Positions 1 through 19,786 of a stretch of DNA of 64,000 bases are shown piece by piece. This DNA comes from Kineococcus mangrovi (GTDB lineage: Bacteria > Actinomycetota > Actinomycetes > Actinomycetales > Kineococcaceae). The notes under the pieces are model-generated. The model searched no databases. It saw only the letters and a program-made list of their open reading frames with translations, and was not told the DNA's origin. Position numbers and translations under genes: made by a program. Within the stretch, counting starts at the first letter, position 1; every line of letters starts with the position of its first letter. The stretch spans positions 248,001 to 312,000 of the forward strand of contig NZ_JBGGTQ010000006.1 in NCBI RefSeq assembly GCF_041320705.1, read 5' to 3'.

Positions 1-1
1 G

Positions 2-3495: not shown

Positions 3496-3743
3496 CCCCC
3501 CTGACCCCCTTGACCGTCGAGGCGGTCCTGTCCGACCTGGCGAGCGCTGCCGGCCTCCCGCGCGAGGAGGTCGCGCGCGAGGACCCGCTGGACGACCTCG
3601 GCGTCGACTCGATCCGGCTCATGGCGCTCGTCGACCGCTGGCGCCGCGCGGGGGCCGACGTCTCGTTCCCGCGCATCGCCGCCGCCCGCACCGTCGAGGA
3701 CGTGCTCATCGTCCTCGTCCCCACCCCCTCCCGGAAGGCCTGA
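3480..3743 (+). CDS. Stand-alone aryl carrier protein
   Basis: A free carrier protein of 87 residues, similar to the C-terminal aryl carrier domain of EntB but without the isochorismatase part. The phosphopantetheine attachment site is the Ser of LGVDSIRLM, near residue 42. It should carry the acyl starter (DHB or salicylate) from the upstream ligase domain to the first condensation domain at 4811. The GTG start lies 16 bases inside the ATPase gene and the next gene begins 3 bases after its stop, so it is translationally coupled. The residues before the core are a Pro/Leu/Thr-rich run (PLTPLTPLT). The small size and overlap make it easy to miss. Confidence 0.85.
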   Translation: MPAPLTPLTPLTVEAVLSDLASAAGLPREEVAREDPLDDLGVDSIRLMALVDRWRRAGADVSFPRIAAARTVEDVLIVLVPTPSRKA

Positions 3744-3746
3744 CCC

Positions 3747-4814
3747 GTGACCGCACCCCTGTCGACCCCCGACCGCACCCCCACCCGGACGACCACGACC
3801 CGGACGACCACGACCCGGACGACCACGACCCGGCGGGGGGTGGTCGGCGCGCTGGGCGCGTCGGTGCTCCTCGCCCTCGCCGCCTGCGGGGGGCCGGACG
3901 ACGCGGCGGCCGGCACGAGCGCGACCGGTGGGACGAGCGGAGGAGCGACGCGCTCGGTCCAGACGGCGTTCGGTGCCGTCGACATCCCCACCGAACCCCG
4001 CCGCGTCATCGCGCTCGAAGGGGCCGTGGGCCCGCTGCTCGGCGCCGGGATCACCCCGCTGGCCACGGCCGACGGCGACTACGAGGACGCCTTCCTGCCG
4101 CAGGAGTACGAGCAGGTCTCCGACCTGCCGGTCGTCCTGGGCGCCGACGGCTGGGACTACGAGCGGATCTCCTCCCTCGAACCGGACCTGATGATCGGGT
4201 TCGTCCGCGGCGGGACGACCGAGGAGCTGTCCGCCGAGGCCACCGCGACGTGGGAGAAGCTCAACGCCATCGCCCCCACCGTCCTCGTCCGCTCCGACGG
4301 CTCGGCCCGCACGAAGGACGCGACGCTGGAGATGTCGCACGTCCTCGGCGACGGCGACGACGCCGACCGGGCGAAGGCCGCCTACGACGCCAAGGCCGCC
4401 CAGATCCGCACCGACTACGCCGACGTGCTGGCGGGCAACGTGTTCGCCCCCCTCGACTTCTACGAGGAGGTCACGGTCTACTCGCCGATCTCCTGGCCCG
4501 GGGACACGGTCGTGGACGCCGGGGGGACCCTCACCGCCGTCTCGCGGGACATCACCGACGAGAACGCCGCGTTCCTGTCCGCCGAGCAGCTCGGCACCGT
4601 GACCGACGCGACGGCCGTCCTGTACGAGCAGAGCCTCGACGGGGAACCCGGCGTGGGGGCCGCCGAGATGATGGCGCTGCCGACGTGGCAGCAGTTGCCC
4701 GCCGTGCGCGACGGTCACGCCTACGGTCTGCGGTACTTCTTCGCCGACCGGTACGAGACCGCCCTGGTGGCGCTGGAGGACTTCGAGGAGGCCCTGGTGG
4801 CGATGCGGGGATGA
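3747..4814 (+). CDS. Siderophore-binding lipoprotein of ABC importer
   Basis: A periplasmic-binding-protein-type receptor (FepB/FecB family) anchored to the outer face of the membrane. About 355 residues. The leader has twin arginines (RRGVVG), a hydrophobic stretch and a lipobox ending LLALAAC-G, so lipidation at the Cys near residue 51 is expected. The region before the signal sequence is odd: three perfect 15-bp repeats encode TRTTT units (see repeat). The body has the usual family start (GAVDIPTEPRRVIALEG), where the ligand is gripped between two lobes. It sits between the carrier protein gene (3-base gap) and NRPS1, with which it overlaps as ATGA. Confidence 0.92.
   Translation: MTAPLSTPDRTPTRTTTTRTTTTRTTTTRRGVVGALGASVLLALAACGGPDDAAAGTSATGGTSGGATRSVQTAFGAVDIPTEPRRVIALEGAVGPLLGAGITPLATADGDYEDAFLPQEYEQVSDLPVVLGADGWDYERISSLEPDLMIGFVRGGTTEELSAEATATWEKLNAIAPTVLVRSDGSARTKDATLEMSHVLGDGDDADRAKAAYDAKAAQIRTDYADVLAGNVFAPLDFYEEVTVYSPISWPGDTVVDAGGTLTAVSRDITDENAAFLSAEQLGTVTDATAVLYEQSLDGEPGVGAAEMMALPTWQQLPAVRDGHAYGLRYFFADRYETALVALEDFEEALVAMRG
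3783..3834 (+). repeat. Three tandem 15-bp repeats in a lipoprotein leader
   Basis: The unit acccggacgaccacg occurs three times without mismatch at 3783-3797, 3798-3812 and 3813-3827, followed by a partial copy. Each unit adds five residues (TRTTT register) upstream of the twin-arginine signal peptide of the siderophore-binding protein. Repeat units are a multiple of three, so copy-number change keeps the frame. Alternatively, translation could begin after the repeats, but no better start codon is visible. Confidence 0.9.
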
Positions 4815-7800
4815 CGACCCGCACCGGATCGTCCGCCGGGACGCTCACCGAGGCGCAGCGGGGGGTCGTCCACGCCCAGCTCGTGGCCGACGACCCCGCG
4901 TCGTTCACGGTCGGGGAACTCGTGCACCTCACGGTCCCCGCGTCCGCGCCGGGGCTCGTCCCGGCCGACGTCGCCGCCGCCGTGGCGCAGGCCGTCCGCG
5001 AGACCGGGCTGGACGCCGTGCGGGTGGCGGTGGACGGGGCCGTGACGACCGGTCCGGACCGGTTCACCGGCCCGGGGACCACCCCGGTCGCCGACGTCGC
5101 CGCGGCCCGGGCGTGGGCAGCGCTGCGGATCGCCCGCGGCCTGCCGCTGGGACCGGACCCGTTGCACGAGCAGCACCTCCTCGTCGTCGGTCCCCGGCAC
5201 GTCGCGTGGTTCACCGGGTGGCACCACGTCCTCGTCGACGGCTGGGGGGTGGGTCTCGTGGTGCGGCGGGTCACCGAGCTCCTGGCCGCGCGCCGCGGGG
5301 GGACCCCCGCTCCGGCGGCCTGGTTCACCCCGGTCGCCGACGTCGCCGCGGCCGAGCAGGAGTACCGGGCCTCGGCCGCCTCCGCGCGCGACCGGGCGTT
5401 CTGGGTCGACCGGGCGGGGACCGAGGGCGCCGCCCGCGGGTTCGGCGACCCGGCCGCCGCGCGCTCCGGCGGCCCGGTGACGGTCCGCTCCGGGCGGTTC
5501 GAGATCACCGGGCCGGACCTCGACCGCGCCGCCGGGCGGTTCGGCGCCACGTGGGCCGAGCTCGCCCTCGCCGCCCACCTCCTCGTCCTGTCCCGGCTGC
5601 GCGGGACGCAGGACGTCGTCCTCGGCGTCCCCCTCATGAACCGCACCGGCACCACCGGGTCCCGGGCCGCGCTGTGCCCCACGACCGTCGTCAACGTCGT
5701 GCCGCTGGCGGTCCGCGTCGACCCCGCCGCCGCGGTGGCCGACCTCGTCGGCGGTGTCGTCGACGCGCTGCGCGAGGTCCGCCGCCACGGCCGGTTCCGC
5801 GCCGAGGAGCTGGCCCGCGCCACGGGGCGGTTGCACCACGACCGCCCCCTCGTGGGGACCGAGCTGAACCTCAAGACCTTCGACCACCCCGACACCGCGG
5901 CCGACGTCGCGGTCGCCGTCGAGAACCTCGGGGAGGGGCCGGTCGACGACCTGTCGGTCTCGCTCACCCGCGCCCGCGACGGCCGGCTGGACTGGCGGGC
6001 CCACGCGCCCGCCGGGCTGCTGCGGGACGAGCAGGTCGACGCCGTGCTCACCGAGTGCGCCGCGCTGCTGCGCGGGTTCTGCGGTGCGGACCCGCGCACG
6101 CCCGTGGCCGCGCTGGCGGGGGCCGCCCCCACCGGGCTGACGACCCCCGCGGTGGACCCGGTCGGCGCCGTCGACCTGCTGCGGGACACGGCCACCCGGT
6201 TCCCCGACCGCCTCGCGCTCGTCGACGGCGGCACCCGCTGGACGGTCACCGACCTCGTCCGGGAGGTCGCCGAGACCGCCGGCTGGCTGGACCGGGCCTG
6301 CCCGCCCGCGACCCCCGTCGCCCTCGACCTGCCCCGCGGCGCCGACGCGGTCGTGGCGCACCTGGCGTGCCTCGTCGCCGGCCGCACGGCCGTCCCCCTC
6401 GACACGACCTGGCCCCTCGCGCGCCGTGACGACCTCGTGCGGCGGCTCGGCCCGGGCGAGTTGCGGCTCACCCCGGGGACCGTCGGCCGCCGGCCCGGGA
6501 CCCGGCTGACGGACCTGCCCGTCCCGGCCCCCGGGACCCCGGCCCACGTGATCCACACCTCCGGGTCCACGGGTGAGCCCAAGGCCGTCCTCGTCACCCA
6601 CGGCGCGTTCGCGGCGTTCCTGGCCCACCACCGCGCGACGACGTTCGCCCCCGGCCGCGGAACCCCCGCCGACCGCGGGCTGCGCGTCGCGCAGACGCTG
6701 CCGCTGGTGTTCGACGGGTCGTGGGACACGCTGCAGGCCGTGCTGTCCGGGCACGAGGTGCACCTGCTGGCGCGGGAGGTGGCGCAGGACCCCGCCGCGA
6801 CGGTCGCCGCCGTCCGCGCGCACGGCCTGGAGTTCGTCGACACGACGCCCACCGTGGCGGCCGCCCTGCTCGACGCGGGCCTGCTCACCCGACCGCACCC
6901 GGTGCGGGTCCTGACCGTGGGCGGTGAGGCCTGCCCGCCCGCGCTGTGGGCGCGGCTGCGGGGCGAACCCGGTCTCGTCGTGCGCAACCTCTACGGGCCG
7001 ACCGAATCCACCGTCGACGCGGTCGGCCTCGAGGGTGAGGACGCCGCCGTCGGCGGAACCCCCATCGGCCGGCCCGTGCACGGCACGACCGCCCGGGTCC
7101 TCGACACCCACCTGCGGCCCGTCCCGGTGGGTTTCCCCGGCGAGCTCCACCTCGCCGGCCCCCAGCTCGCCCTCGGCTACCGCGGCGCGGGGGCGCTCAC
7201 CGCCGCCCGGTTCGTCGCCGACCCGTGGGGCCCGCCGGGCAGCCGGATGTACCGCACGGGTGACCTCGTCGCGCTGCGGGCCGACGGGTTGCTGGACTAC
7301 CTCGGCCGCGCCGACCGGCAGCTCAAGGTGCGCGGGTACCGGGTGGAACCGGCCGAGGTCGAGAGCGCGCTGCTGCGCCTGGCCGGTGTCCGGCAGGCGG
7401 CCGTCGTGGAACGCGGGGGCCGGCTCCTCGCCTACGTCGTCGGACCCCGCGACACGCACGGGGCGGGGGACGCCCTGCGCGCGGCGGCCGCCGACGTCCT
7501 GCCCGAGCACCTCGTCCCCGCGGCCGTCGTCGTCCTCGACGCCCTGCCGCGCACCGCCACCGGCAAGCTGGACCCGACCGCGCTCCCGCAGCCGACGGCC
7601 GGTGCCCCGGCCCCCGGCCGCCCCCCGCACGGCCCGGCCGAGACCGCGTGGGCGCGCTCGCTGGCCGACGCCCTCGGGCTGCCGGTCGCCGACGTCCGGG
7701 CCGGGAGCGACTTCTTCGCGCTCGGCGGGGACTCCATCACCGCGATCCGCGCCGTCGCCGCGTTCCGGGGCCGGGGTTTCTCCGGTTCCGTGAGCACCGT

Positions 7801-7954
7801 CTTCACCCGCCGCACCGTCGAGGCGGTCGCCGCGGCGGCCACCCCCGTCGTCGCCGCGGTGCCCGCGCCCGCGGTGCCGCAGTTCGACGCCGCCCAGATC
7901 TCGCAGGTGCAGGACCTCCTCACCCGCCGCCGCACCGGAGGACGCCGCGCATGA
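4811..7954 (+). CDS. Siderophore NRPS module 1: C-A-T
   Basis: A 1047-residue peptide synthetase with one complete module. The condensation domain (about residues 10-430) has intact HHVLVDG near residue 138, and its opening (LTEAQRGVV) resembles starter C domains of the EntF type that accept an aryl acyl group. The adenylation domain (about 450-920) has TSGSTGEPK near 583 and TATGKLD near 915. The carrier domain has GGDSIT near 973. My reading of the ten-residue pocket is DGDDTGLVDK: two acidic side chains in the pocket suggest a basic substrate such as ornithine or a relative, but this is inference. It likely joins DHB (from the free aryl carrier) to the first amino acid. ATGA overlaps at both ends. 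Confidence 0.93.
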   Translation: MTTRTGSSAGTLTEAQRGVVHAQLVADDPASFTVGELVHLTVPASAPGLVPADVAAAVAQAVRETGLDAVRVAVDGAVTTGPDRFTGPGTTPVADVAAARAWAALRIARGLPLGPDPLHEQHLLVVGPRHVAWFTGWHHVLVDGWGVGLVVRRVTELLAARRGGTPAPAAWFTPVADVAAAEQEYRASAASARDRAFWVDRAGTEGAARGFGDPAAARSGGPVTVRSGRFEITGPDLDRAAGRFGATWAELALAAHLLVLSRLRGTQDVVLGVPLMNRTGTTGSRAALCPTTVVNVVPLAVRVDPAAAVADLVGGVVDALREVRRHGRFRAEELARATGRLHHDRPLVGTELNLKTFDHPDTAADVAVAVENLGEGPVDDLSVSLTRARDGRLDWRAHAPAGLLRDEQVDAVLTECAALLRGFCGADPRTPVAALAGAAPTGLTTPAVDPVGAVDLLRDTATRFPDRLALVDGGTRWTVTDLVREVAETAGWLDRACPPATPVALDLPRGADAVVAHLACLVAGRTAVPLDTTWPLARRDDLVRRLGPGELRLTPGTVGRRPGTRLTDLPVPAPGTPAHVIHTSGSTGEPKAVLVTHGAFAAFLAHHRATTFAPGRGTPADRGLRVAQTLPLVFDGSWDTLQAVLSGHEVHLLAREVAQDPAATVAAVRAHGLEFVDTTPTVAAALLDAGLLTRPHPVRVLTVGGEACPPALWARLRGEPGLVVRNLYGPTESTVDAVGLEGEDAAVGGTPIGRPVHGTTARVLDTHLRPVPVGFPGELHLAGPQLALGYRGAGALTAARFVADPWGPPGSRMYRTGDLVALRADGLLDYLGRADRQLKVRGYRVEPAEVESALLRLAGVRQAAVVERGGRLLAYVVGPRDTHGAGDALRAAAADVLPEHLVPAAVVVLDALPRTATGKLDPTALPQPTAGAPAPGRPPHGPAETAWARSLADALGLPVADVRAGSDFFALGGDSITAIRAVAAFRGRGFSGSVSTVFTRRTVEAVAAAATPVVAAVPAPAVPQFDAAQISQVQDLLTRRRTGGRRA

Positions 7955-10900
7955 CCAGCCCGACCGGACCCCTCGTGTGGCCCACGACCCCGCTGCAGCG
8001 CGGGTTGCTCGCCCTGGCCGAGACCGGCACCACCGGTCCGGGACGTCCCGACCCGTACACGGGGCAGGCCGTCGTGCGGATCCGCGGCCCCCTGCCCGCC
8101 GGGGCCCTGCGCCGGGCGGTGGAGGGGCTGGTCGCGGACGAGCCCCAGCTGCACGCGGGGTTCGTCGTCGCCGACGACCTCGACGCGGTGCAGTTCGTCG
8201 AACCCGGGACCCGTCCGCGCCTGCGCACGGTCGTCCTCGACGACCCCGCCGACCTCGACGCGGCGCTGGCGACCACCCGCTCCTCGGACCTCGCCGCCGG
8301 GTTCGCCCTCGACGACCCGCCGCTCGTGCGGTGGACCCACCTCGACGCCGGCGGGGAGTCCGTCCTCGTCGTCACCGCGCACCACGCCGTGCTGGACGCC
8401 TGGTCGATGCCGTTGCTGACCGGGCAGATCGCGCGCCGGCTCGCCGCGGAGGTCCCGGGACCGCACGACGTGCCCGCCGCACCCGCGGCCCGGTACCAGG
8501 ACCACCTCGGGTGGCTGGCCGCGCAGGACACCGCCGCCGCCACCGGGTTCTGGGAGCGGCACCTCGGGCACCTGGTGGGAACCCCCGGCGCGCCCGCCGT
8601 CGAAGGGCACGAGCGGCGGCGGTCGCGCGCCACCGTGCGTCCGCCGGGCGGCGCCGCCTGGGACGGGCTGACCGCGGCCGACCGCGCCCGGACCTGCTGG
8701 GGCCTCGCCCTGGACGCCGTGACCGGTCGTGCGGCGACCCCGTTCGCCGTCCCCGTCTCGGGCCGGGACCCGCAGGTCCCCGGTGTCGAGACCGCGATCG
8801 GGTTGTTCACCGACTCCGTCCTCGTCGCCGACCCCGTCGACGCCGCGACCCCCGGCCGCACCCTGGCCGACCTCACCCGCGCCGGGGCCGACCGGTGGCG
8901 GGCGTCCCTGCCCCACCACCACGTCGGCACGACCGGCATCCTCCGCGCCCTGCGCAGCCCGGAACTGGCCACCAGCCTGCTGGCCGTGGAAGCAGCGCGA
9001 CCGCCGCGGGTGTGGCGGGTCGGCGGGACGACGCTGGAACTGCAGGACGTCGAGGACGACACGCACTACCCGTTCGCCCTCACCGTCCGGCCCGGCGCGC
9101 AGGAGTGGGAACTCCTGCTGGACCACACGGGCGACGAGCCCACGGCCCGCCGCCTCCTGCACGCCGTCGGGGCGTTCCTCGCGGCCGACCCGCACGTCCC
9201 CGTCGCCGCGGTCCCCCTGCTCAGCGGTGCCGACCTGGACGCGCTGCGGCGCAGCGGCACCGGGCCCGACGTGGGGGCCGCGGTGCCGCCGCTGCTGCCC
9301 CACCGGTGGGCCGAGGTCTCCGCGCGCTGCGCCGACCGCGACCTGCTGGTGAGCGCGGGGCCCGGGGGCGAGACGTCCCGGCAGACCGGCGCCGACCTCG
9401 CCCGGGCCGTCGACGCGCTGCGCGAGCAGGTGCTCGCCGCGCTGCCCGCGGGGACCCCGCGGGGGACCCGCACCGTCGCCGTCTCCGTGCCGCGGGGCGA
9501 GCGCACCGTCGAGGCCCTGCTGGCCGTCCTGTCGGCCGGGGCGACCGTCCTGGTCCTGGACCCGGCCCTGCCCGCGGCCCGGCGCGCCGACGTCCTCACC
9601 GGCGCCGGGGCGCTCGTCCTCGTGACGGCCGACGCGGTGCGGGCGCTGCACGACGGCCCGCGCGGGGCGGTGGCCGTCGAACCCGGCCCCGACGACGTCG
9701 CCGCGGTCGTGCTCACCTCCGGTTCCACCGGGACCCCCAAACCCGTCGCCGTCCCGCACCGCGCGCTGGCGCACCTGTGCGCCCGGCACTCGACCGACCT
9801 GCACCCCGCGGAACCCGTCCAGGTCGCCCACACCGCGGCGTTCCACTTCGACGCCCAGTGGGACGCGCTGCTCGCGCTGTTCGGCGGGCACACCGTGCAC
9901 GTCCTCGCCGAGGACCTGTTCCTCGACCCGTTCGCCCTGGCCGGGTACGTCCGCGAGCACGCCATCGCCTACCTCGACCTGACCCCGACGGTCTGGTCGG
10001 CCCTCCTCGCGGCCGACGCGTTCGGGGAACTGCCCGCCGTGTGCGTCGTCGGCGGGGAGGCGTTCGGTGCGGACCTGTGGACGCGGATGCGCGAACTCGC
10101 GGCCCGCACGGGATCGAGGGTCCTGAACCTCTACGGCCCCACCGAGGCCACGGTCGACGCCTTCGCCGCGGACGTGCGGGACGCGGACGTCCCCGTCGTC
10201 GGGACCCCCGTCGGGGTGACCGGCGCGGTCGTCCTCGACGCGTGGCTGCGGCCCGTCCCGCCGGGGACGGAGGGGGAGGTGCACCTCGCCGGTGCGCAGC
10301 TGGCCCACGGCTACCTCGGCCTGCCCGCGCGGACCGCCGAACGGTTCGTGGCGAACCCCTTCCCGACGTGGTTGCCGGGGGACCGGCTGTACCGCACGGG
10401 GGACCGGGCCCGCTGGGACGAGGCCGGCCGCCTGCACGTCGCCGGTCGCACCGACGACCAGATCTCGCTGCACGGTCTGCGGATCGAACCGGGGGAGGTC
10501 GAGCACGTGCTCACCGACCACCCCGGGATCTCCCGCGCGGTCGTCCTGGCCCCGCAGGTGGGGCGCGGGCGCCGGCTCGTGGCCTGGGTCGTGCCCTCGG
10601 GGGGGACCCCGACCGCCGAGGAGGTCCGCACGTGGTGCGCCGAGCGGTTGCCCGCCCACCTCGTCCCGCGCGACGTCCTCGTCGTCGCGGACCTGCCGCT
10701 CACCCCGAACGGGAAGCTCGACCGGAACGCGCTGCCCCTGCCCGGGGCCACCCCCACCTCCACGGGCCCGGAACCACCGACCGGCGTCGCCGGGGTCGTC
10801 GCCGACGTCGTCGCCGAGGTCCTGGGGGTTCCCGTCGGCGCGCACGAGGACTTCTTCGCCCTCGGCGGGGACAGCATCTCCGCCGTCCGGGTCGCGGCGC

Positions 10901-13900
10901 GGTTGCGCGCGACCGGCTGGTCGGTGCGCCCGGGCGACGTCCTCCTGGCCCGCACCCCCGCGGCGATCGCCACGCGCGCCACCCCCGGGGTGAGCGCCCC
11001 CTCACCGACCGGCACCGGGGTTCCCGACCTCGCCGACCTCGTCGCCCTCGACCCCGCGGTGCGGGCGGAGCTGACCGCCCACGTGCGCACCGCCGTCCCC
11101 GGATCACCGGCGCTGCAGGCGGTCTGGCCCCTGACCCCGACGCAGCTCGGCCTGCACGTCGACGCTCTGCGCTCGGTGCGCGACCCGTACCGCACCACGG
11201 TGCTGCTGCGCCTGGACGACCCCGCCGGCCGCGTCGACGAGACCGCCGTGCGTCGGGCCGTGGCGGGTCTGACCGCGCGGCACCCGGTGCTGCGCACCGG
11301 TGTCTGGCAGGGGCCGTTGCGAGAACCCGTCGCCTTCGTCGTCGACCGCGTCGAGGTCCCCGTCGACGTCGTGCGGGTGCCCGGTCCCGTCCCGGACGAC
11401 CTGCTGGAGCAGGTGCACCGCGGCGAGCTCGACCGGCCGGTCGACGCGGCCGCGGCCCGGCTGGCCGGGGCGACCTGGGTGCAGGGCGGCGGCAGCCGCA
11501 CGTCCTGGCTCGTGCTGTCCCTGCACCACCTCCTGGTCGACGGGTGGTCGCTGCCCGTCCTGGCCGACGAACTGCGCCGCGACCTCGACGGCCGGGCCGT
11601 GGCCGCCGAGACCGGGGGTTTCCCCGACCACCTGCGCGCCGTCGCCGCCCTCGACCGGGAGGCCCTCGCCCGGACCTGGCGCTCCGAGCTCGCCGGTGCC
11701 CGTCCGACGCTGCTCGGTGGCGGGCGCCTCGCCGACGCGGGTCGGGTCGTCCGCCGGGGACGGACGCTCACCCCGCAGCGGAGCGCCGCCGTCCGCGCGG
11801 GGCTGCGGAGCCGGGGAGCGAGCGTCGCCGCCGTCGCGCAGGCCGCGTGGGCGCACGTCCTGGCCGCCCGCACCGGGCAGCGCGACGTCTGCTGGGCGCT
11901 GACCTCCGCCGGCCGCGGCGCCGACGTCCCCGCCTCGGCCGTGGGGATGTTCGTCACCACCCGCACCGTCCGGGCCGACACGACGTCGCCCACCCTCGTG
12001 CGCGACGTCGCCGGTGCGACCGCCCGCACCGAGGAGGCCGCCGTCCTCGGCCTCGGCGGCATCGAACGCGCCACCGGCCGCCTCGCCGACACCCTCGTCG
12101 TCGTCGAGAACTACCCGTCGGTCCCGCCCGCGGGCGACGGCGTCGCGGTCACCCTCGTGGAGGGCCGCGACGCGACGACGTTCCCCGTCACCGCCACGGT
12201 GTTCCCCGGCGCGGACGAGGTCCGGTTCGAGCTGGAGGTCGACCCGCACCTCCTCGGCGGCGACGTCGGCCCGGAACTGCTCGACGGGTGGGTCGCCGCC
12301 GTGGAGGCGCTGGCCGCGGGAGCGGTCCCGGACCTCGCCGTCCCGCAGGCGCCGCCGTCCCCCGAGGCGACCGTGCCGCGGGCGGACCCCGCCGGCGGCG
12401 CGGTCCCGGACCTCGCCCGCCGCATCGCCGACGTCGCCACCGAGGTCCTGGGCGCACCCACGGGCCCCGGCGACGACTTCTTCGCCGCCGGCGGGGACAG
12501 CATCTCCGCGGTCCACCTCGTCGGTGCCCTGCGCGCCCGGTCCATCGCCGTCGGCATCGCCGACGTCTTCGCCGCCCGGACGCCCCGGGGGATCGCCGCG
12601 GTGGCCCGGGACGTCGACGTCCCGGCCGGTCCCCCCGCGGGAACGCCCGTCGCGACACCGGCCCTGGCCTGGTTCACCGACCTGGCCCGCACCGCCGACG
12701 TCACCGCGCTGCGGGGTTTCCAGCAGGTCCGCGTCGTCGACCTGCCCGCCGGGACCGGCGCGCAGGACGTCGCCGCCGCGGCGACGGAACTGCTCGCCCG
12801 GCACGAGGCCCTGCGCCTGCGCGCCCTCCCGGACCCGGGTCTGGCGGCGCCGGGGGCGGCCGTCGTCACCGCCGTCGCGGGCGCGGAGCTGGAACCCGCG
12901 CTCGCCCGCGCCGCCCGGGCGATCGACCACACCACCGGTGACCTCGTCCGCTGGGTCGTCACCGACCCGGGCGGACCGGGGCCGCGGCTGGCCGTCGCGG
13001 CCCACCACGTCGCCGTCGACGCCGTGTCGTGGCCGGTGCTGCTCGACGAGCTCCGCGTCCTGCTGGCGGGCGGGACCTTGCCGCCCGCCCCGTCGTTCAC
13101 CGCCTGGACGCACGCGCAGCAGCGGGCCGTGGAGGCCGCGCGCGAGCACCGCGCGCACTGGAGACGGGAACTGCGCCCGTGCCCACCGCTGACCGGGGAC
13201 CAGGCGGACCCGGGCGACCTCGGCACGGCGGGGGCCGCGCTGACGCGCGAGGTCGTCCTCGACCCGCTGCGCAGCAAGCGGTTCCTCGACCTGGCCGCCG
13301 CCGGGTGGCGACCCGACGCCCTGCTCCTGGCCGCGCTCACCGCCGCCCGCGGGCAGGACCTGCTCGTGGAGCTCGAAGGCCACGGCCGCCCCACCGCGCT
13401 GCCCGCCGGCGACCCGCGGCAGAGCCCGGACGCGGCCGCCGTCGGGTGGTTCACCGCGACCTGGCCGGTCCGCCTGCCCGGCCGGGACCACTCGCGGGCG
13501 CTGGGCGACCACGTCGCGAGCACCGCCCGCGCCGTGCTGGCCTCGGCCGCGCTGGGACCGGACTTCGGCCTGCTGCAGCACCTCGACCCCGCCTCGGCCG
13601 ACCTCGCCGCGGCGTGGGCGGCGAACCGCCCGCAGGTGCTCGTGAACTGGCTGGGCCGCGACGTCCCCGCCGGGGCGGGCCACCGGCCGTGGCGGACGAG
13701 CCTCGACGCCGCCGGTCTGGAGGACCGCCTGGGTCTGCACGCCGGTCTGCCCGTCTCGCACGGCTGGGAGCTGAACGCCTGGGCCACCACCCGGGACGGC
13801 GAACCCGCCGTCGTGGCGCGCTGGCAGGTGGCCGCTGCCCTGCGGCACCACGCCGGCGACGTCCTGGACCGGTGGGTCGCCGACCTCGCCGCCGTCCTGG

Positions 13901-15597
13901 ACGCCACGGCCGGGACCGCGCCGCCGGCGGTGCACGACGCCGTCGGGCTCGACGCCGCCGACCTCACCCGGCTCGCCGTGAACACCCCTGCGCCGCAGGC
14001 GGTCTGGCCGCTCACCCCGGTGCAGCGGGGGATGCTGTTCCACGCCGGGGACGGCCCGGACCGCTACACCTCGCACGTCGAGCTGCGCCTGGGCGGCGCG
14101 CTGGAGGCGGACCGGCTGCGGGTGGCGCTGGAGCGGACCGTCGCGGCGCACCCGCAACTGCGCTGCCACGTCGCGGACACGGCGTCCGGTCCGGTGCTGG
14201 TGAGCGTCGCCGACGTCGCGGTGCCCTGGTCCCGGCACGACCTCGCCGTGCGCGGGAGCCTCGACGCGCACCGTCGCGCCGACCTGGAGGAGCCGTACGA
14301 CCTGCGCTCCGGCCCGCTGCTGCGGGCCCGGCTGGTGCGCACGGCACCGGACGAGCACGTCCTGCTGCTCGGGTCGCACCACCTGCTCCTCGACGGGTGG
14401 TCGGTGCCCGCCCTCGTCGACGAACTCCTCGGCCGGTACGCCGGGACGTGGCGGGAACCGGACGAGGACCTCGTCCGCGGCCCGTTCGCGCGGGCGACCG
14501 CGCGACGGTCGGGGTCCACCGGTTCCACCGAGCGGTGGCGGGACCTGCTCGCGCCCGTCGCCGCGGACCTCGTCCCGGCGTTGCCGCCGGGGTTCGACGA
14601 CGGCACGCCCGTCGCCGCCGTGACCGCGGACCTGCCCGCCGGTGCGCTGACCGTCGCCGCCCTGGCCTGCGGGGCCACCCCGGCAGCGGTCGTCGCGGCG
14701 GCCTGGTCGCTCGTGCTGGCCGCGCTCGCGGGGCGGGACACCGTCTCGCCCGGGGTCGTCGTCTCCGGTCGTGACGCCGGTGCGCGGGACGTGCTGGGCA
14801 TGTTCGTCGACACCGTGCCGCTCGTCGCGCGCTGCCGGGGGGACGTGGGGGGCCTCGTGCGCGACCTCGCGGGGCAGACCCTGCACGCGGGGGCGGAGAA
14901 CCCCGTCGGGCTCGCGGCCCTGGCGGCCGACCTCGGTCGCGCCCCGTGGACGGACACCCTGCTCGTCGTCGAGAACTACCCCGGTGGCGGTGCCGAGCGG
15001 GCCGCCGCGGCCGCCGGCCTGGAACTGCGGGACGTCACCGGCCGCGACGGCACGCACTACGCGCTGACGCTGACGGCGGAGGACACCGCGGGGGCGGGCT
15101 CGCTGCGCCTGGAGCACCACCCGCGGTTGCTGTCCGCGACGGAGGCGGCCGACGTGCTGGCCGCCGTCACCGACGTCGTCGTCCGCGCGGCCGACCCGTC
15201 CACGGACGTCACCGACCTGCTGCCCCGCCGCCGGTTCGCCGCCGTCCGCGCGCGGTGGGACGCCGTGGACGGACCCGCCGGCGCCGGGGGACCGGTCGAG
15301 GACGTGCGGGCCGTGTTCGCCGACCTGTTCGGCCGCCCCGTCGGGGACGACGAGGACTTCTTCGCCCTCGGCGGCGACAGCGTCCTGGCGATGTCCCTCG
15401 TCACGGGGTTGCGGGCGGTGGGGTGGTCGGTGCGGCCCTCGGCCGTCTTCACCGCCCCGACCCCGACCGCGCTCGCCGCCCTCGCCGCACCCGTGGCCGC
15501 GGCGCCCACGCCCCGGGAAACCCCGGCCGCCCCGCTCGTCGACCTCGACGCGCGCGCGACCGCCGCCCTCGACAGCCTGCTGAGGAACCTCGCGTGA
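7951..15597 (+). CDS. Siderophore NRPS 2: C-A-T-C-T-E-C-T with two A-less modules
   Basis: A 2548-residue synthetase. Domain order with approximate residues: C1 9-430, A 450-935, T1 around Ser 975 (GGDSIS), C2 1054-1457 (HHLLVDG near 1192), T2 around 1517 (GGDSIS), E 1571-2004 (HHVAVDAVSW near 1685), C3 2015-2434 (HHLLLDG near 2144) and T3 around 2476 (GGDSVL). There is one adenylation domain for three carrier domains, and the missing ones are not present as remnants: the spacing from C2 to T2 and from C3 to T3 is short. C1 has HHAVLDA in place of HHxxxDG, keeping the His and Asp. The A pocket reads DADDVGLVDK, again acidic. T2 and T3 must be charged in trans, by another A domain here or elsewhere. 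The E domain predicts a D-residue at module 3. Confidence 0.92.
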   Translation: MTSPTGPLVWPTTPLQRGLLALAETGTTGPGRPDPYTGQAVVRIRGPLPAGALRRAVEGLVADEPQLHAGFVVADDLDAVQFVEPGTRPRLRTVVLDDPADLDAALATTRSSDLAAGFALDDPPLVRWTHLDAGGESVLVVTAHHAVLDAWSMPLLTGQIARRLAAEVPGPHDVPAAPAARYQDHLGWLAAQDTAAATGFWERHLGHLVGTPGAPAVEGHERRRSRATVRPPGGAAWDGLTAADRARTCWGLALDAVTGRAATPFAVPVSGRDPQVPGVETAIGLFTDSVLVADPVDAATPGRTLADLTRAGADRWRASLPHHHVGTTGILRALRSPELATSLLAVEAARPPRVWRVGGTTLELQDVEDDTHYPFALTVRPGAQEWELLLDHTGDEPTARRLLHAVGAFLAADPHVPVAAVPLLSGADLDALRRSGTGPDVGAAVPPLLPHRWAEVSARCADRDLLVSAGPGGETSRQTGADLARAVDALREQVLAALPAGTPRGTRTVAVSVPRGERTVEALLAVLSAGATVLVLDPALPAARRADVLTGAGALVLVTADAVRALHDGPRGAVAVEPGPDDVAAVVLTSGSTGTPKPVAVPHRALAHLCARHSTDLHPAEPVQVAHTAAFHFDAQWDALLALFGGHTVHVLAEDLFLDPFALAGYVREHAIAYLDLTPTVWSALLAADAFGELPAVCVVGGEAFGADLWTRMRELAARTGSRVLNLYGPTEATVDAFAADVRDADVPVVGTPVGVTGAVVLDAWLRPVPPGTEGEVHLAGAQLAHGYLGLPARTAERFVANPFPTWLPGDRLYRTGDRARWDEAGRLHVAGRTDDQISLHGLRIEPGEVEHVLTDHPGISRAVVLAPQVGRGRRLVAWVVPSGGTPTAEEVRTWCAERLPAHLVPRDVLVVADLPLTPNGKLDRNALPLPGATPTSTGPEPPTGVAGVVADVVAEVLGVPVGAHEDFFALGGDSISAVRVAARLRATGWSVRPGDVLLARTPAAIATRATPGVSAPSPTGTGVPDLADLVALDPAVRAELTAHVRTAVPGSPALQAVWPLTPTQLGLHVDALRSVRDPYRTTVLLRLDDPAGRVDETAVRRAVAGLTARHPVLRTGVWQGPLREPVAFVVDRVEVPVDVVRVPGPVPDDLLEQVHRGELDRPVDAAAARLAGATWVQGGGSRTSWLVLSLHHLLVDGWSLPVLADELRRDLDGRAVAAETGGFPDHLRAVAALDREALARTWRSELAGARPTLLGGGRLADAGRVVRRGRTLTPQRSAAVRAGLRSRGASVAAVAQAAWAHVLAARTGQRDVCWALTSAGRGADVPASAVGMFVTTRTVRADTTSPTLVRDVAGATARTEEAAVLGLGGIERATGRLADTLVVVENYPSVPPAGDGVAVTLVEGRDATTFPVTATVFPGADEVRFELEVDPHLLGGDVGPELLDGWVAAVEALAAGAVPDLAVPQAPPSPEATVPRADPAGGAVPDLARRIADVATEVLGAPTGPGDDFFAAGGDSISAVHLVGALRARSIAVGIADVFAARTPRGIAAVARDVDVPAGPPAGTPVATPALAWFTDLARTADVTALRGFQQVRVVDLPAGTGAQDVAAAATELLARHEALRLRALPDPGLAAPGAAVVTAVAGAELEPALARAARAIDHTTGDLVRWVVTDPGGPGPRLAVAAHHVAVDAVSWPVLLDELRVLLAGGTLPPAPSFTAWTHAQQRAVEAAREHRAHWRRELRPCPPLTGDQADPGDLGTAGAALTREVVLDPLRSKRFLDLAAAGWRPDALLLAALTAARGQDLLVELEGHGRPTALPAGDPRQSPDAAAVGWFTATWPVRLPGRDHSRALGDHVASTARAVLASAALGPDFGLLQHLDPASADLAAAWAANRPQVLVNWLGRDVPAGAGHRPWRTSLDAAGLEDRLGLHAGLPVSHGWELNAWATTRDGEPAVVARWQVAAALRHHAGDVLDRWVADLAAVLDATAGTAPPAVHDAVGLDAADLTRLAVNTPAPQAVWPLTPVQRGMLFHAGDGPDRYTSHVELRLGGALEADRLRVALERTVAAHPQLRCHVADTASGPVLVSVADVAVPWSRHDLAVRGSLDAHRRADLEEPYDLRSGPLLRARLVRTAPDEHVLLLGSHHLLLDGWSVPALVDELLGRYAGTWREPDEDLVRGPFARATARRSGSTGSTERWRDLLAPVAADLVPALPPGFDDGTPVAAVTADLPAGALTVAALACGATPAAVVAAAWSLVLAALAGRDTVSPGVVVSGRDAGARDVLGMFVDTVPLVARCRGDVGGLVRDLAGQTLHAGAENPVGLAALAADLGRAPWTDTLLVVENYPGGGAERAAAAAGLELRDVTGRDGTHYALTLTAEDTAGAGSLRLEHHPRLLSATEAADVLAAVTDVVVRAADPSTDVTDLLPRRRFAAVRARWDAVDGPAGAGGPVEDVRAVFADLFGRPVGDDEDFFALGGDSVLAMSLVTGLRAVGWSVRPSAVFTAPTPTALAALAAPVAAAPTPRETPAAPLVDLDARATAALDSLLRNLA

Positions 15598-18500
15598 CCA
15601 CCGCCAGCCACACCGCCAGCCACACCACCAGCCCCCCGGCCGTCGAGGTGCTCCCGCTCTCGCCGCTGCAGGCGGGGCTGCTGTTCCACGCCGTCGCCGG
15701 TGACGGGTCGCTGGACGTGTACTCGATGCAGTCGACCTACCGGTTCGCCCCGGGGACCGACCTCGCGGTGCTCCGGTCCGCGTGCGCGGCCCTGCTGGAA
15801 CGCCACGGCGCTCTGCGCGCGGGGTTCTCCGCGGCCCTGCTGGACCGGCCCGTGCAGTTCGTCCCCGCCGCGGTCCCGCTGCCGTGGCGCGAGGTCGTGT
15901 CCGACCCGGCCGACGACGCGGCCGCCCAGGCGGAACTGTCCGCCCTGCAGCGCCGGGAACGCGAACGCCGGTTCGACGTCGACCGCCCACCCCTGGTCCG
16001 CTTCGTCGGTCTCGACCTCGGCACCCACGGCGTGCACCTCCTCGTCACCAACCACCACCTCGTCCTCGACGGCTGGTCCGACGCGCTGCTGGTCGTCGAG
16101 CTCCTGCGGCACGTGCGGGCCGGGGGCCGGGACACCACGCTGCCGCCCGCTCCGCAGTTCCGGGAGTTCCTCGGCTGGCTCGCCGGCCGGGACGCCGAGG
16201 CCGACCGCGCCGCGTGGCGTCGTGCGCTGGGCGGGCTCACCGCGGGCACGACCGTGGCCGAACCCTCCGCGGTGCGCGAGCAGGTGCTGCCCGACGTGGT
16301 GGAACGCGACCTGCCCGGTGACCTCACCGACCGGCTGATCACGACCGCCCGCGCCGCCGCCGTCTCGGTGAGCACCGTCTGCTCGACGGTGTGGGCCCTC
16401 GTCCTGCGGTCCCTCACCGGGGCCGACGACGTCGTGTTCGGCCAGACCGTCTCGGGCCGGCCACCGGAACTGCCCGGTGTCGACGAGACCGTCGGGTTGT
16501 TCCTCAACACCGTCCCGCACCGCGTCCGGCTCGACCCCGCGCTCGACGTCACGGCGCTGCTGCAGCGGGTCCACCGCGAGTCCGGCGCCCTGGTCGAGAA
16601 CCACCACGTCGGTCTGGGCGACGTGCAGCGCGACGCGGGGGTCGGCCCGCTGTTCGACACGCTGTACGTCATGCGCAACACCCCGGAGGACGACGCCGCG
16701 TTCGCCGAGCTCGCCGCCGCGACGGGGTTGGCCGACGTCGAGGGCGGCGACGCCACGCACTACCCGCTGACGTTCGTCGTGCACCCGGGCGAGCCCTACC
16801 GGTTCATCCTGTCCCACGCCCCGGACGTGTTCCCCGCCGCCGCGGCCGAGGACCTGCTCGAGCGCGCCGTCCGCGTCCTGGAGGCGGTCACCGCGGACCC
16901 GCACCGGTTGCTCGGGACCGTCCCGACGCTGGACCCCGCGAGCGCCGGGGACCTCGTCGCGTCGTGGGCCGGGGACCACCGCGCCCTGCCCGCCGACTCC
17001 CTCACCGCACGCCTGGCCCGGACCGCGGCGCGGTTCCCCGACCGGACCGCCCTCGTCGACGACGACGTGGCGCTCGACTTCGGGCGGCTCTGGGCCGCGG
17101 TCGTCGTGCAGGCGGAGGCGTTGCGGCGCGACGGTGTCCGTCCCGGCGACCTGGTCGGCGTGGAACTGCCGCGCGGGGTGAGGACCGTCGTGGCCCTGCT
17201 GGCCGTGCTGGCCGCCGGGGCCGCGTACGTGCCGGTCGACCCGTCCCACCCGGCCGAGCGCCGCGCGCGGGTCCTGCGTCGGGCCGGGGTCGTCACGACC
17301 CTGGACACCTCGACCGCCTCGCCCCTGCCGGGACCGGGCGCCCGCAGTTCCGCGACGGCCGAGGAACTCCACCCGGCGTACCGGCACGACGACCTGGCCT
17401 ACGTCATGTTCACGTCGGGTTCCACCGGTGACCCCAAGGGGGTCCAGGTCGAGCACCGCGGGCTGGTGAACATGGCCGAGAACCACCGCCGGCGGATCTT
17501 CGAGCCCGCCGGGGCGGTACCCGGCGGGGAACCCTGGCGCGTCGCGCACGCCGTCTCCTTCGCCTTCGACATGTCGTGGGAGGAGCTGCTCTGGCTGCTC
17601 GACGGCCACGAGGTCCACCTGCTGTCCGAGGACGTGCGCCGCGACCCCGCCCTGATGGCCGCGCTCGTGGACCGGCGACGGGTCGACGTCCTGAACGTCA
17701 CCCCGTCGGTGGCTTCGGCGCTGCTGGCCGAGGGGTTGCTCGACGCCGGGCGGCACCGCCCCCGGCTGGTGCTGCTGGGCGGGGAGGCCGTCGGTCCCGA
17801 CGTCTGGGACGCCCTGCGGGACACCCCCGGGACGGAGGGGTACAACCTCTACGGCCCCACCGAGTACACGATCAACACGCTCGGCGGGGGCACCGCCGAC
17901 AGCGCCACCCCGACCGTCGGCCGGCCCGTCGACGGCACCGACGTGCGCGTCCTCGACACGTCGCTGCAACCGGTGCCCGACGGGGTCCCCGGGGAGTTGT
18001 GGGTGAGCGGGGCCGGGTTGGCCCGCGGGTACCACGACGCCCCGGCCCTGACCGCCGAACGGTTCGTCGCCGACCCGTGGGGGCCGCCGGGGCGGCGCAT
18101 GTACCGGACCGGTGACGTCGTCTCCCGCCGCCCCGACGGCGGTTTCGACTTCCACGGCCGCAGCGACACCCAGGTCAAGGTCCGCGGGTTCCGCGTCGAA
18201 CCCGGGGAGGTCGCCGCCGTCGTCGCCCGCGACGAGCTCGTCGCCCGCGCCGCCGTCGTGGTGCGCCCGGCACCGGGCGGGAACCCCGTCCTCGTCGGGT
18301 ACGTCGTCCCCGCCGTGCCGGACCTGGCCGGTCGGCTGGGCGAGGTGACCGAGCGGCTGCGCGCGCAACTGCCCGAGCACATGGTCCCGGCCGCCCTCGT
18401 CGTCGTCGCCGACCTGCCGCTGACGGTGAACTCCAAGCTCGACCTGGGGGCCCTGCCCGTCCCGGACCTGAGCGCCACCGGCCGGGCGCCCCGCACGGCC

Positions 18501-19598
18501 GAGGAGGAGACGGTCTGCGCCGCGTTCGCCGAGGTGCTCGGCCTGCCGCGGTTCGGGGCCGACGACGACTTCCACACCGCGGGTGGGCACTCCCTGCTGG
18601 CCATGCGCCTCGCGGCGCTGCTCACCGACCGGCTCGGCACCCGCGTCGGGGTGGCCGCCGTCCTGGGGAACCCCACCCCCGCCGGGCTGCTGGCCGCCCT
18701 GCACCGGCCGCAGGCCGACCCCTGGGGGCCGGTGCTGCCGCTGGGCGGTCGGGACCGGGCGCGGGGGACCGTCGTCTGCGTCCCGCCGCTGCTCGGGCTG
18801 GGCTGGACGTTCGCGGCCCTCGCGGCGCGACTGCCCGGCGGGCAACGGGTCCTGGCGCTGCAGTCCCCGGCGCTGGCGGCCGACCCCGCCGAGGTCGCGG
18901 CCCTGCCCACGACGCTGGAGGGCCTGGCCGACCTGCTCGTCCCGCACGTGCTCGCCGGCACCGACGGCGAGCCCGTGCACCTCGTCGGGTTCTCCTTCGG
19001 GGCCCACCTCGCCCACGTCCTCGCCTCCCGGCTGGAGGAGCGGGGCGTCGACCTGGTGTCCCTGACGCTGCTGGACCCCGGCGCCCCGGGGGGTGCCCTG
19101 CCCGCCGGGGTCGAGGTGGGCGAGCCGGTGGGCGCGGACCAGGAGGCGCTGGAGTACCTGCTGACGCTGTCCCTGCGGGACCGGCCCGACTGGCTCACCC
19201 GCCCCTACGAGCCCGACGACGTGCTGGAGTTCCTCGCCGAGGGCAACGGGGTGCTCGCCGGGTTCGGCCGGGCCGAGCTGGACCGGGTCGTGCGGTCCGC
19301 GGTCCACTCCGCGTCCGTCCCGGGTCCGGTCGAGCACCGTCCGGTCACCGTCCCCGTCCTGCTCGTGGCCAGCACCGCCCCCGGCCACCGGACCGGGCAC
19401 GTGCCCACGGCCGCCGACCTGGAGGCCGAACGGGCGGCGTGGCAACCCCTGTGCCGCCGGCCGGTGCAGCTCGCCACGGTCGACGTGGTCCACACCGCGA
19501 TCACCTCCCCGGCGGGCTCGGACCAGGTCGCCCGCCTCCTGACCCCGTTCGCCGCCGCCGCCCTCGCCCGGCGCACCACCCCCGAGGAGACCCCGTGA
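15594..19598 (+). CDS. Siderophore NRPS 3: C-A-T-TE, predicted N-hydroxyornithine module
   Basis: The 1334-residue terminal synthetase. C domain with HHLVLDG near residue 153; A domain with TSGSTGDPK near 607 and VNSKLDL near 945 (Ser where Gly is usual before the catalytic Lys); T domain with GGHSLLAM near 997; thioesterase with GFSFG near 1132 and a C-terminal VHTAI holding the likely catalytic His. My reading of the A pocket is DMENLGLINK, the code I recall for L-N5-hydroxyornithine in coelichelin synthetase. That fits the N-hydroxylase half of the first gene. The thioesterase should release the peptide by hydrolysis or cyclisation. GTG start inside a GTGA overlap; the next gene, mbtH-like, overlaps the same way. 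Confidence 0.93.
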   Translation: MTTASHTASHTTSPPAVEVLPLSPLQAGLLFHAVAGDGSLDVYSMQSTYRFAPGTDLAVLRSACAALLERHGALRAGFSAALLDRPVQFVPAAVPLPWREVVSDPADDAAAQAELSALQRRERERRFDVDRPPLVRFVGLDLGTHGVHLLVTNHHLVLDGWSDALLVVELLRHVRAGGRDTTLPPAPQFREFLGWLAGRDAEADRAAWRRALGGLTAGTTVAEPSAVREQVLPDVVERDLPGDLTDRLITTARAAAVSVSTVCSTVWALVLRSLTGADDVVFGQTVSGRPPELPGVDETVGLFLNTVPHRVRLDPALDVTALLQRVHRESGALVENHHVGLGDVQRDAGVGPLFDTLYVMRNTPEDDAAFAELAAATGLADVEGGDATHYPLTFVVHPGEPYRFILSHAPDVFPAAAAEDLLERAVRVLEAVTADPHRLLGTVPTLDPASAGDLVASWAGDHRALPADSLTARLARTAARFPDRTALVDDDVALDFGRLWAAVVVQAEALRRDGVRPGDLVGVELPRGVRTVVALLAVLAAGAAYVPVDPSHPAERRARVLRRAGVVTTLDTSTASPLPGPGARSSATAEELHPAYRHDDLAYVMFTSGSTGDPKGVQVEHRGLVNMAENHRRRIFEPAGAVPGGEPWRVAHAVSFAFDMSWEELLWLLDGHEVHLLSEDVRRDPALMAALVDRRRVDVLNVTPSVASALLAEGLLDAGRHRPRLVLLGGEAVGPDVWDALRDTPGTEGYNLYGPTEYTINTLGGGTADSATPTVGRPVDGTDVRVLDTSLQPVPDGVPGELWVSGAGLARGYHDAPALTAERFVADPWGPPGRRMYRTGDVVSRRPDGGFDFHGRSDTQVKVRGFRVEPGEVAAVVARDELVARAAVVVRPAPGGNPVLVGYVVPAVPDLAGRLGEVTERLRAQLPEHMVPAALVVVADLPLTVNSKLDLGALPVPDLSATGRAPRTAEEETVCAAFAEVLGLPRFGADDDFHTAGGHSLLAMRLAALLTDRLGTRVGVAAVLGNPTPAGLLAALHRPQADPWGPVLPLGGRDRARGTVVCVPPLLGLGWTFAALAARLPGGQRVLALQSPALAADPAEVAALPTTLEGLADLLVPHVLAGTDGEPVHLVGFSFGAHLAHVLASRLEERGVDLVSLTLLDPGAPGGALPAGVEVGEPVGADQEALEYLLTLSLRDRPDWLTRPYEPDDVLEFLAEGNGVLAGFGRAELDRVVRSAVHSASVPGPVEHRPVTVPVLLVASTAPGHRTGHVPTAADLEAERAAWQPLCRRPVQLATVDVVHTAITSPAGSDQVARLLTPFAAAALARRTTPEETP

Positions 19599-19786
19599 AC
19601 CCGTTCGACAACCCCGACGCCGACTTCCGCGTGCTCGTCAACGAGGTCGGTCAGCACAGCCTGTGGCCCGTCTTCGCCGAGGTGCCCGCCGGGTGGACCG
19701 TCGTGCACGGCCCCGTCCGCCGGGACGCCGCGCTGGCGTACGTCGACGAGCACTGGAGCGACATCACCCCGCGAACCCCCGCGTGA
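19595..19786 (+). CDS. MbtH-like NRPS accessory protein
   Basis: A 63-residue MbtH-family protein, the small partner that binds and stabilises adenylation domains. The family landmarks are all present: NPFDNPDADF at the start, GQHSLWP, the PAGW turn and the terminal EHWSDITP with the conserved tryptophans. It lies directly after the last NRPS gene with a GTGA overlap and overlaps the exporter gene in the same way, so it is made in step with the synthetases. Confidence 0.95.
   Translation: MNPFDNPDADFRVLVNEVGQHSLWPVFAEVPAGWTVVHGPVRRDAALAYVDEHWSDITPRTPA

What the first reader, a model, noticed from the sequence alone, without database searches (positions are those of the whole stretch)
7951..15597. 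NRPS with three carrier domains but one adenylation domain (C-A-T-C-T-E-C-T)
Modules 3 and 4 of the assembly line lack A domains, yet their C, T and E domains have intact motifs. With five T and only three A domains in the cluster, two positions must be loaded in trans, perhaps by the acidic-pocket A domains here acting more than once or by an A domain from another locus. This breaks colinearity and makes the product hard to predict.
Basis: partly seen in the sequence, partly recalled or inferred. Interest (0 to 1): 0.7.

Follow-up and report, generated by a model that had tools for sequence, protein, structure and literature searches.

The report
Siderophore assembly line sharing amino-acid loaders
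This bacterial enzyme for making an iron-scavenging molecule really has two stations with no loading unit of their own; a sister species keeps the same layout with no other enzyme of the kind found, so the stations are probably loaded by units inside the same assembly line, a trick already shown in fungi and in one bacterial antibiotic pathway.

Summary
ORF 7951-15597 is C-A-T-C-T-E-C-T; linkers of about 13 and 16 residues join C to T in modules 3 and 4, and a six-frame AMP-binding search finds no second A domain. It is not an assembly error: a congener (G006) has an ortholog (78% identity over C2-T2-E) with the same layout and specificity codes. The A-less modules keep catalytic motifs, with dN/dS like that of the other NRPS1/NRPS2 C domains. 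G006 shows no Condensation match elsewhere, and none of ten other adenylating loci tested there has both Asp235 and Lys517, so a donor from another locus is unlikely. Most likely NRPS2's own A domain (Arg-like code) loads T1, T2 and T3, as SidC A3 does in fungal ferricrocin synthesis. Skipping, or loading by the hydroxyornithine A domain of NRPS3, is not excluded. A-less C-T modules recur in actinobacterial NRPSs, including a second DHB cluster of this genome. New variant of a known kind.

The parts
1..2644 (+). DHB-AMP ligase (stand-alone A domain) fused to L-ornithine N-monooxygenase; begins upstream of the window
   Evidence: same fusion in G006
2677..3495 (+). ABC transporter ATPase (siderophore uptake); start inferred
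3492..3743 (+). free-standing carrier protein, taken as the aryl carrier for DHB (function inferred)
3747..4814 (+). periplasmic binding protein (Peripla_BP_2)
4811..7954 (+). NRPS1, C-A-T; A code DGDDTGLVDK; C domain groups with first-module C domains of other DHB clusters
7951..15597 (+). NRPS2, C-A-T-C-T-E-C-T
7969..9240 (+). NRPS2 C1
9301..10725 (+). NRPS2 A, code DADDVGLVDK (Arg-like, inferred)
10789..10986 (+). NRPS2 T1
11116..12375 (+). NRPS2 C2 of A-less module 3
12376..12414 (+). C2-T2 linker, no A domain
12415..12612 (+). NRPS2 T2
12613..13920 (+). NRPS2 epimerisation domain
13996..15246 (+). NRPS2 C3 of A-less module 4
15247..15294 (+). C3-T3 linker, no A domain
15295..15492 (+). 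NRPS2 T3
15594..19598 (+). NRPS3, C-A-T-TE; A code DMENLGLINK (hydroxyornithine, recalled)
19663..21129 (+). MFS transporter, taken as exporter
21126..22001 (+). siderophore-interacting protein
21998..23016 (+). FecCD permease (start inferred)
23013..24059 (+). FecCD permease

Best explanation
A DHB/hydroxyornithine siderophore assembly line: DHB on the free carrier, then NRPS1 (C-A-T), NRPS2 (C-A-T, C-T-E, C-T), NRPS3 (C-A-T-TE). The two A-less modules work, and their carriers are charged by A domains of this same cluster, most likely by NRPS2's own A domain, which loads T1 in its own module and T2 and T3 one and two modules downstream, as SidC A3 loads T3, T4 and T5. Predicted chain: DHB - basic residue - Arg-like - D-Arg-like - Arg-like - hydroxyornithine. 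Shown: architecture, conservation in two species, constraint on the A-less modules, no other Condensation match in G006. Inferred: that loading happens, its donor, the Arg identity, the product.
For: Same A-less layout and same codes in G006. G006 has 7 Condensation stretches, all within C16:82842-94686, i.e. this cluster. Its ten other adenylating loci tested have no Asp235+Lys517 pair; best NCBIfam matches are acyl-CoA, acetate-CoA or o-succinylbenzoate ligases for seven, several below the curated cut-off; two have only a Pfam AMP-binding assignment; one is an A-T-TE protein found in 10 of 10 congeners. C2, C3, T2, T3 and E have dN/dS 0.24-0.36, against 0.28 for C1 and 0.33 for NRPS1 C. C1, C2 and C3 form one clade (96/92; C2+C3 96/87), as tandem duplicates would. 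In the window genome T2 and T3 are nearer T1 (43%, 48%) than NRPS3 T (30%, 38%) or NRPS1 T (35%, 42%). Direct precedents: SidC A3 (PMC10192304, passages) and CmnA-A1 to CmnI (PMC12400406, passages).
Against: No biochemistry. The C1-C2-C3 clade rests on long branches: with C2 or C3 dropped, support is 83 or 70 (98 for C2+C3 when C1 is dropped); C+T combined gives 86 with a long-branch warning, and T domains alone do not form the clade. T identities separate the donors weakly: in G006 T3 is 38% to T1 and 33% to NRPS3 T, and T1 itself is 43% to NRPS1 T. NRPS3 C is under tighter constraint (dN/dS 0.13) than the A-less C domains. C1 and C2 look like DCL domains although no E domain precedes them, which this model does not explain. 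Three Arg-like residues in a row would be unusual for a siderophore (my judgement). In three related clusters the A-less module lies just before a Gly module, which suggests a downstream donor there.
Confidence: 0.42

Rival explanations
1. The hydroxyornithine A domain of NRPS3 also loads T3 and/or T2 (downstream donor), giving several hydroxyornithines.
For: In the contig-C3 cluster, G395 and G025 (3 of 3) the A-less module comes directly before a Gly module, and the position after E in G308, G253 and G217 (3 of 3) has its own Gly A domain, so the next A domain is the likely donor there. More hydroxamates would help iron binding; the cluster carries an ornithine monooxygenase.
Against: NRPS3 T is little like T2 and T3 (30-38% in the window genome); NRPS3 is a separate protein; no acyl or formyl transferase was seen among the neighbouring genes scanned, so extra hydroxyornithines would need another way to become hydroxamates.
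Confidence: 0.2
2. The A-less modules are passed through or skipped: the chain moves over T2 and T3 without extension and E epimerises the residue passed to T2.
For: C1 motifs of C2 (LTPTQLGL) and C3 (LTPVQRGM) have Gly where I place the gating Arg of LCL domains (position matched by eye); PMC8097023 (passages) says C domains where carrier-bound transfer could occur bear Gly or a small residue there. C2 has this type although no E precedes it. No donor is demonstrated.
Against: HHxxxD and GGDS motifs are intact in both species and dN/dS is well below 1. The same passages give Gly at that site as usual (80%) for DCL domains.
Confidence: 0.17
3. NRPS1's A domain (code DGDDTGLVDK) loads T2 and/or T3.
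For: Its A domain is sister to NRPS2's A domain (SH-aLRT 87); T2/T3 versus NRPS1 T is 35-42% in the window genome.
Against: It is a separate protein, and nothing found points to it over NRPS2's own A domain.
Confidence: 0.11
4. An A domain from another locus loads them, for example the Gly or hydroxyornithine-code A domain of the second DHB cluster (contig C3, 326-352 kb) or the A-T-TE protein on contig C5.
For: The window's genome has three NRPS loci with A domains.
Against: G006 keeps both A-less modules with no Condensation match outside the cluster; the A-T-TE protein has Ser at 235 and occurs in 10 of 10 congeners, 9 of which have no Condensation match. One sub-threshold AMP-binding match in G006 was not examined.
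Confidence: 0.07
5. Sequencing error or decaying modules.
For: None found.
Against: Open frame and identical layout in two genomes, intact motifs, dN/dS well below 1.
Confidence: 0.02

Closest known systems
SidC, fungal ferricrocin/ferrichrome NRPS (PMC10192304, passages)
   Same: One A domain followed in the same protein by two A-less modules; A3 loads its own carrier and carriers one and two modules downstream
   Different: Fungal, loads acetyl-hydroxyornithine; no E domain mentioned in the passages seen; homology of the modules not tested
CmnI / CmnA-A1, capreomycin (PMC12400406, passages)
   Same: Bacterial A-less module loaded by an A domain that also serves its own module
   Different: Separate A-less protein, one A-less module, antibiotic rather than siderophore
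Fuscachelin NRPS (PMC8097023, passages) and look-alikes here (G308, G253, G217)
   Same: DHB start, Arg-like first-module code, hydroxyornithine-code last module (seen in G217); A domains from the same wider clade; C1-C3 are nearest its post-E Gly module in the tree
   Different: Every complete module seen in the fetched stretches has its own A domain; E in the first module; Gly-Gly-Ser in the middle
DHB cluster on contig C3 of the own genome, and G395 cluster
   Same: DHB ligase, Arg-like code, one A-less C-T module, hydroxyornithine-code A, TE (Pfam in G395; by eye in the own cluster)
   Different: One A-less module, after E and before a Gly module; ligase and monooxygenase in separate frames in the own C3 cluster

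Membership tests
NRPS with A-less modules and inter-modular (trans-iterative) loading | C-T module without an A domain, active-site motifs intact | tested here: met
NRPS with A-less modules and inter-modular (trans-iterative) loading | A-less state conserved and under selection | tested here: met
   (two species only)
NRPS with A-less modules and inter-modular (trans-iterative) loading | Carrier charged by another module's A domain | not testable with these tools
   needs a loading assay; no other Condensation match in G006 is indirect
SidC-like layout | A domain followed in the same protein by two A-less modules | tested here: met
   an E domain lies between, which the SidC passages do not mention
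Fuscachelin-type catecholate-hydroxamate NRPS | DHB genes and ligase, Arg-like A code, hydroxyornithine A code | tested here: met
   substrate identities are inferred or recalled; in the A tree the Arg-code rows are not shown to be one clade
Fuscachelin-type catecholate-hydroxamate NRPS | E in the Arg module followed by Gly-Gly modules | tested here: not met
   no Gly-code A domain in the cluster, E after T2
Siderophore biosynthesis cluster | Siderophore uptake and transporter genes alongside | tested here: met

The most novel reading that the evidence does not exclude
A single bacterial A domain charges three carriers in its own polypeptide, one of them feeding an epimerisation domain, after tandem duplication of a module and loss of two A domains: an independent bacterial counterpart of fungal SidC that makes a DHB siderophore with a run of Arg-like residues.
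Probability: 0.3. Interest if true: 0.6.

Novelty: new variant of a known kind. Interest (0 to 1): 0.42.

Why it matters
[quoted passage not shown] G006 offers a clean case: two A-less modules, three candidate amino-acid A domains, no other Condensation match in the genome. The comparison also shows A-less C-T modules in several actinobacterial NRPSs; their ten DCL-type C domains do not form one clade (p-AU 0.002; group named after seeing the tree, long branches present). Product prediction from A domains alone would be one or two residues short in such lines.

Tried and rejected
Hidden A domain in the linkers: rejected. Assembly error: rejected. Aryl carrier fused to isochorismatase: not so, the carrier is free-standing. 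Orphan amino-acid A domain elsewhere: the only A-T protein seen outside NRPS loci (contig C5) has Ser at 235 and is general to the genus. The T-domain tree for donor choice was unresolved. Full-text search for the code strings found no paper. Searches by phrase and by related siderophores listed no paper that, from title and abstract start, describes this architecture in a bacterial siderophore; only open-licence PMC papers are searchable. A search on the ligase-monooxygenase fusion listed no paper that names it in title or abstract start. First code extraction mis-set position 239 for other families; redone, where Ser, Thr and Gly codes came out canonical (canonical codes recalled). The search for related loci gave 8 loci of 30-38% identity in the best segment; some served as comparison rows only. 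No structure prediction was run.
Full report
CHECK OF THE OBSERVATION. One A domain lies at about 9301-10725. In modules 3 and 4, C and T are separated by linkers of about 13 and 16 residues, and a six-frame PF00501 search of the whole genome shows no other A domain in this ORF. The E domain has HHVAVDAVSW, EGHGR and NWLGR; its matches in solved structures include the tyrocidine synthetase A chain 2xhg, though the best hits are PvdL chains. Two pieces were cut out of frame by my mistake and were redone.

WHAT THE WINDOW HIDES. The window starts inside the cluster. Upstream are an SDR (DhbA-like), an isochorismatase without carrier domain, an isochorismate-synthase-like frame (read by eye) and a DHB-AMP ligase fused to an L-ornithine N-monooxygenase. 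A free-standing carrier protein lies at 3492-3743. Counting these, the cluster has four A and six T domains; two amino-acid carriers still lack a cis A domain. Transport genes of siderophore type follow, so a siderophore role is sound by context.

CONSERVATION. Of 10 congeners searched, one (G006) has the NRPS2 ortholog, 78% identical over the C2-T2-E query, with the same three NRPS genes, the same A-less modules and identical 10-residue codes. In wider samples only these two genomes carry it: 2 of 149 in the order (5 of 149, these two included, have any match at 1e-30) and 1 of 396 in the phylum at 1e-50, the window genome itself (G006 would have matched, so it was evidently not drawn). Between the two species dN/dS is 0.36 and 0.33 for C2 and C3, 0.24 and 0.31 for T2 and T3, 0.35 for E, against 0.28 for C1, 0.33 for NRPS1 C, 0.13 for NRPS3 C, 0.06-0.23 for the other T domains and 0.19-0.24 for the A domains. 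The A-less C domains are constrained like the other C domains of NRPS1/2, and less than that of NRPS3.

WHO COULD LOAD THEM. In G006 all 7 Condensation stretches lie in this cluster. Of its 17 AMP-binding stretches, 5 lie in the cluster and 12 elsewhere, at eleven places; one of these is below the cut-off and was not examined. None of the ten tested has both Asp235 and Lys517 (one, probably a short acyl ligase, has Asp but Glu at 517 in a gapped alignment). Best NCBIfam matches of nine scanned G006 proteins: acetate-CoA ligase (2) and o-succinylbenzoate ligase (1) over the curated cut-off, acyl-CoA ligase types (4) below it, nothing at 1e-90 for two; the tenth was scanned by Pfam only. One of the two is an A-T-TE protein; its ortholog on contig C5 of the window genome has relatives at 62-89% in 10 of 10 congeners and carries Ser at position 235. 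So in G006 the three amino-acid A domains of the cluster are the only evident donors. In the window genome two other NRPS loci exist, so cross-loading is not excluded there, only unnecessary.

WHICH ONE. Codes: NRPS1 DGDDTGLVDK, NRPS2 DADDVGLVDK, NRPS3 DMENLGLINK. The last is the coelichelin hydroxyornithine code by recall; no call confirms it. The first two resemble the first-module codes of G308 (DAEDSGYVDK), G253 (DADDSGCVDK), G217 (DADDTGFVDK), the contig-C3 cluster (DADDLGVVDK) and G395 (DADDVGMVDK). In a quick tree of 33 A domains these nine and the five hydroxyornithine-code rows form one group (94), a branch of 95 parts the nine from the five, and NRPS1 and NRPS2 A pair together (87); the order among the Arg-like rows is unresolved, so they are not shown to be one clade. 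G308 and G253 show that code, then E, Gly, Gly, Ser; G217 adds the hydroxyornithine code. This matches fuscachelin, where DHB-D-Arg-Gly and Gly are the natural substrates of the third C domain (PMC8097023, passages). Arg for NRPS2 A is thus an inference by correspondence. A tree of 50 of the 75 C domains extracted puts C1, C2 and C3 in one clade (96/92), next to the post-E Gly module of the fuscachelin look-alikes (93/95). Branches are long: in a 31-row subset, leaving out C2 or C3 lowers support to 83 or 70 (98 for C2+C3 without C1), and grouping C2/C3 with the A-less modules of the C3 cluster and G395 is not rejected (p-AU 0.11). T2 and T3 resemble T1 most among in-cluster carriers in the window genome (43, 48%) and NRPS3 T less (30, 38%); in G006 the contrast for T3 is small (38 versus 33%). 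These lean to NRPS2's own A domain; they do not prove it. Left unexplained: C1 and C2 look like DCL domains by first motif and tree place, although no E domain stands before them.

PRECEDENTS. SidC A3 loads its own T3 and the T4 and T5 of two A-less modules (PMC10192304, passages): the closest match in layout. CmnA-A1 loads the A-less bacterial module CmnI (PMC12400406, passages). The kind is therefore known; I did not find the combination of two A-less modules, an E domain between them and a DHB/hydroxyornithine siderophore in an actinobacterium in the listings (open-licence PMC only). Passages of PMC12305651 and PMC4757757 describe related phenolate or catecholate hydroxamate siderophores; none of the passages seen reports an A-less module.

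WIDER PATTERN. A-less C-T modules also occur in the contig-C3 cluster of this genome (1), G395 (1), G025 (1), G355 (2), G402 (1) and G405 (1). These regions were picked partly because the search hit spanned C and T, so this is no frequency estimate. Holding the ten DCL-type A-less C domains as one clade is rejected (p-AU 0.002; the group was named after the tree was seen). In the C3 cluster, G395 and G025 the A-less module stands between E and a Gly module, where G308, G253 and G217 have a Gly A domain; there the neighbouring Gly A domain is the natural donor. That is an argument for a downstream donor in general and counts against my preferred upstream donor here.

VERDICT. Real, conserved in two species and functional-looking; most likely loaded within the cluster, by NRPS2's own A domain with moderate probability. 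The mechanism class is known, so interest is moderate; the value is a genome (G006) in which the donor question is reduced to three evident candidates.

Noticed in passing
window 1-2644 (continuing upstream on contig C6); G006 cluster in L030/L031: DHB-AMP ligase and ornithine N-monooxygenase are fused in one ORF in both species; in G308, G253 and the contig-C3 cluster they are in separate frames. Among the matches listed from 394 class genomes none but the window's covers both sides of the junction well; a few reach past it by up to about 45 residues, most of these with stop codons (list truncated).
   Followed up: partly
G000 contig C3 about 326-352 kb (L033, L034): Second DHB siderophore cluster, C-A-T-E-C-T-C-A-T-C-A-T with a TE-like end (by eye), with its own A-less C-T module before a Gly-code module.
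   Followed up: partly
G000 contig C3 about 286-306 kb (L032): Third NRPS locus, with an aryl-AMP-ligase-like protein and Cys-like A codes (DLFNLS type; assignment recalled); may make a thiazoline siderophore.
   Followed up: no
G000 contig C5 19.6-22 kb (L035:2575-5184): A-T-TE protein with relatives in 10 of 10 congeners and Ser instead of Asp235; perhaps activates a keto or hydroxy acid.
   Followed up: partly
G355 (L090:7303-16800): Another actinobacterial NRPS with two consecutive A-less modules, C-A-T-E-C-T-C-T-E.
   Followed up: no
window 7969-9240 and 11116-12375: C1 and C2 of NRPS2 carry DCL-type first motifs although no E domain precedes them.
   Followed up: no
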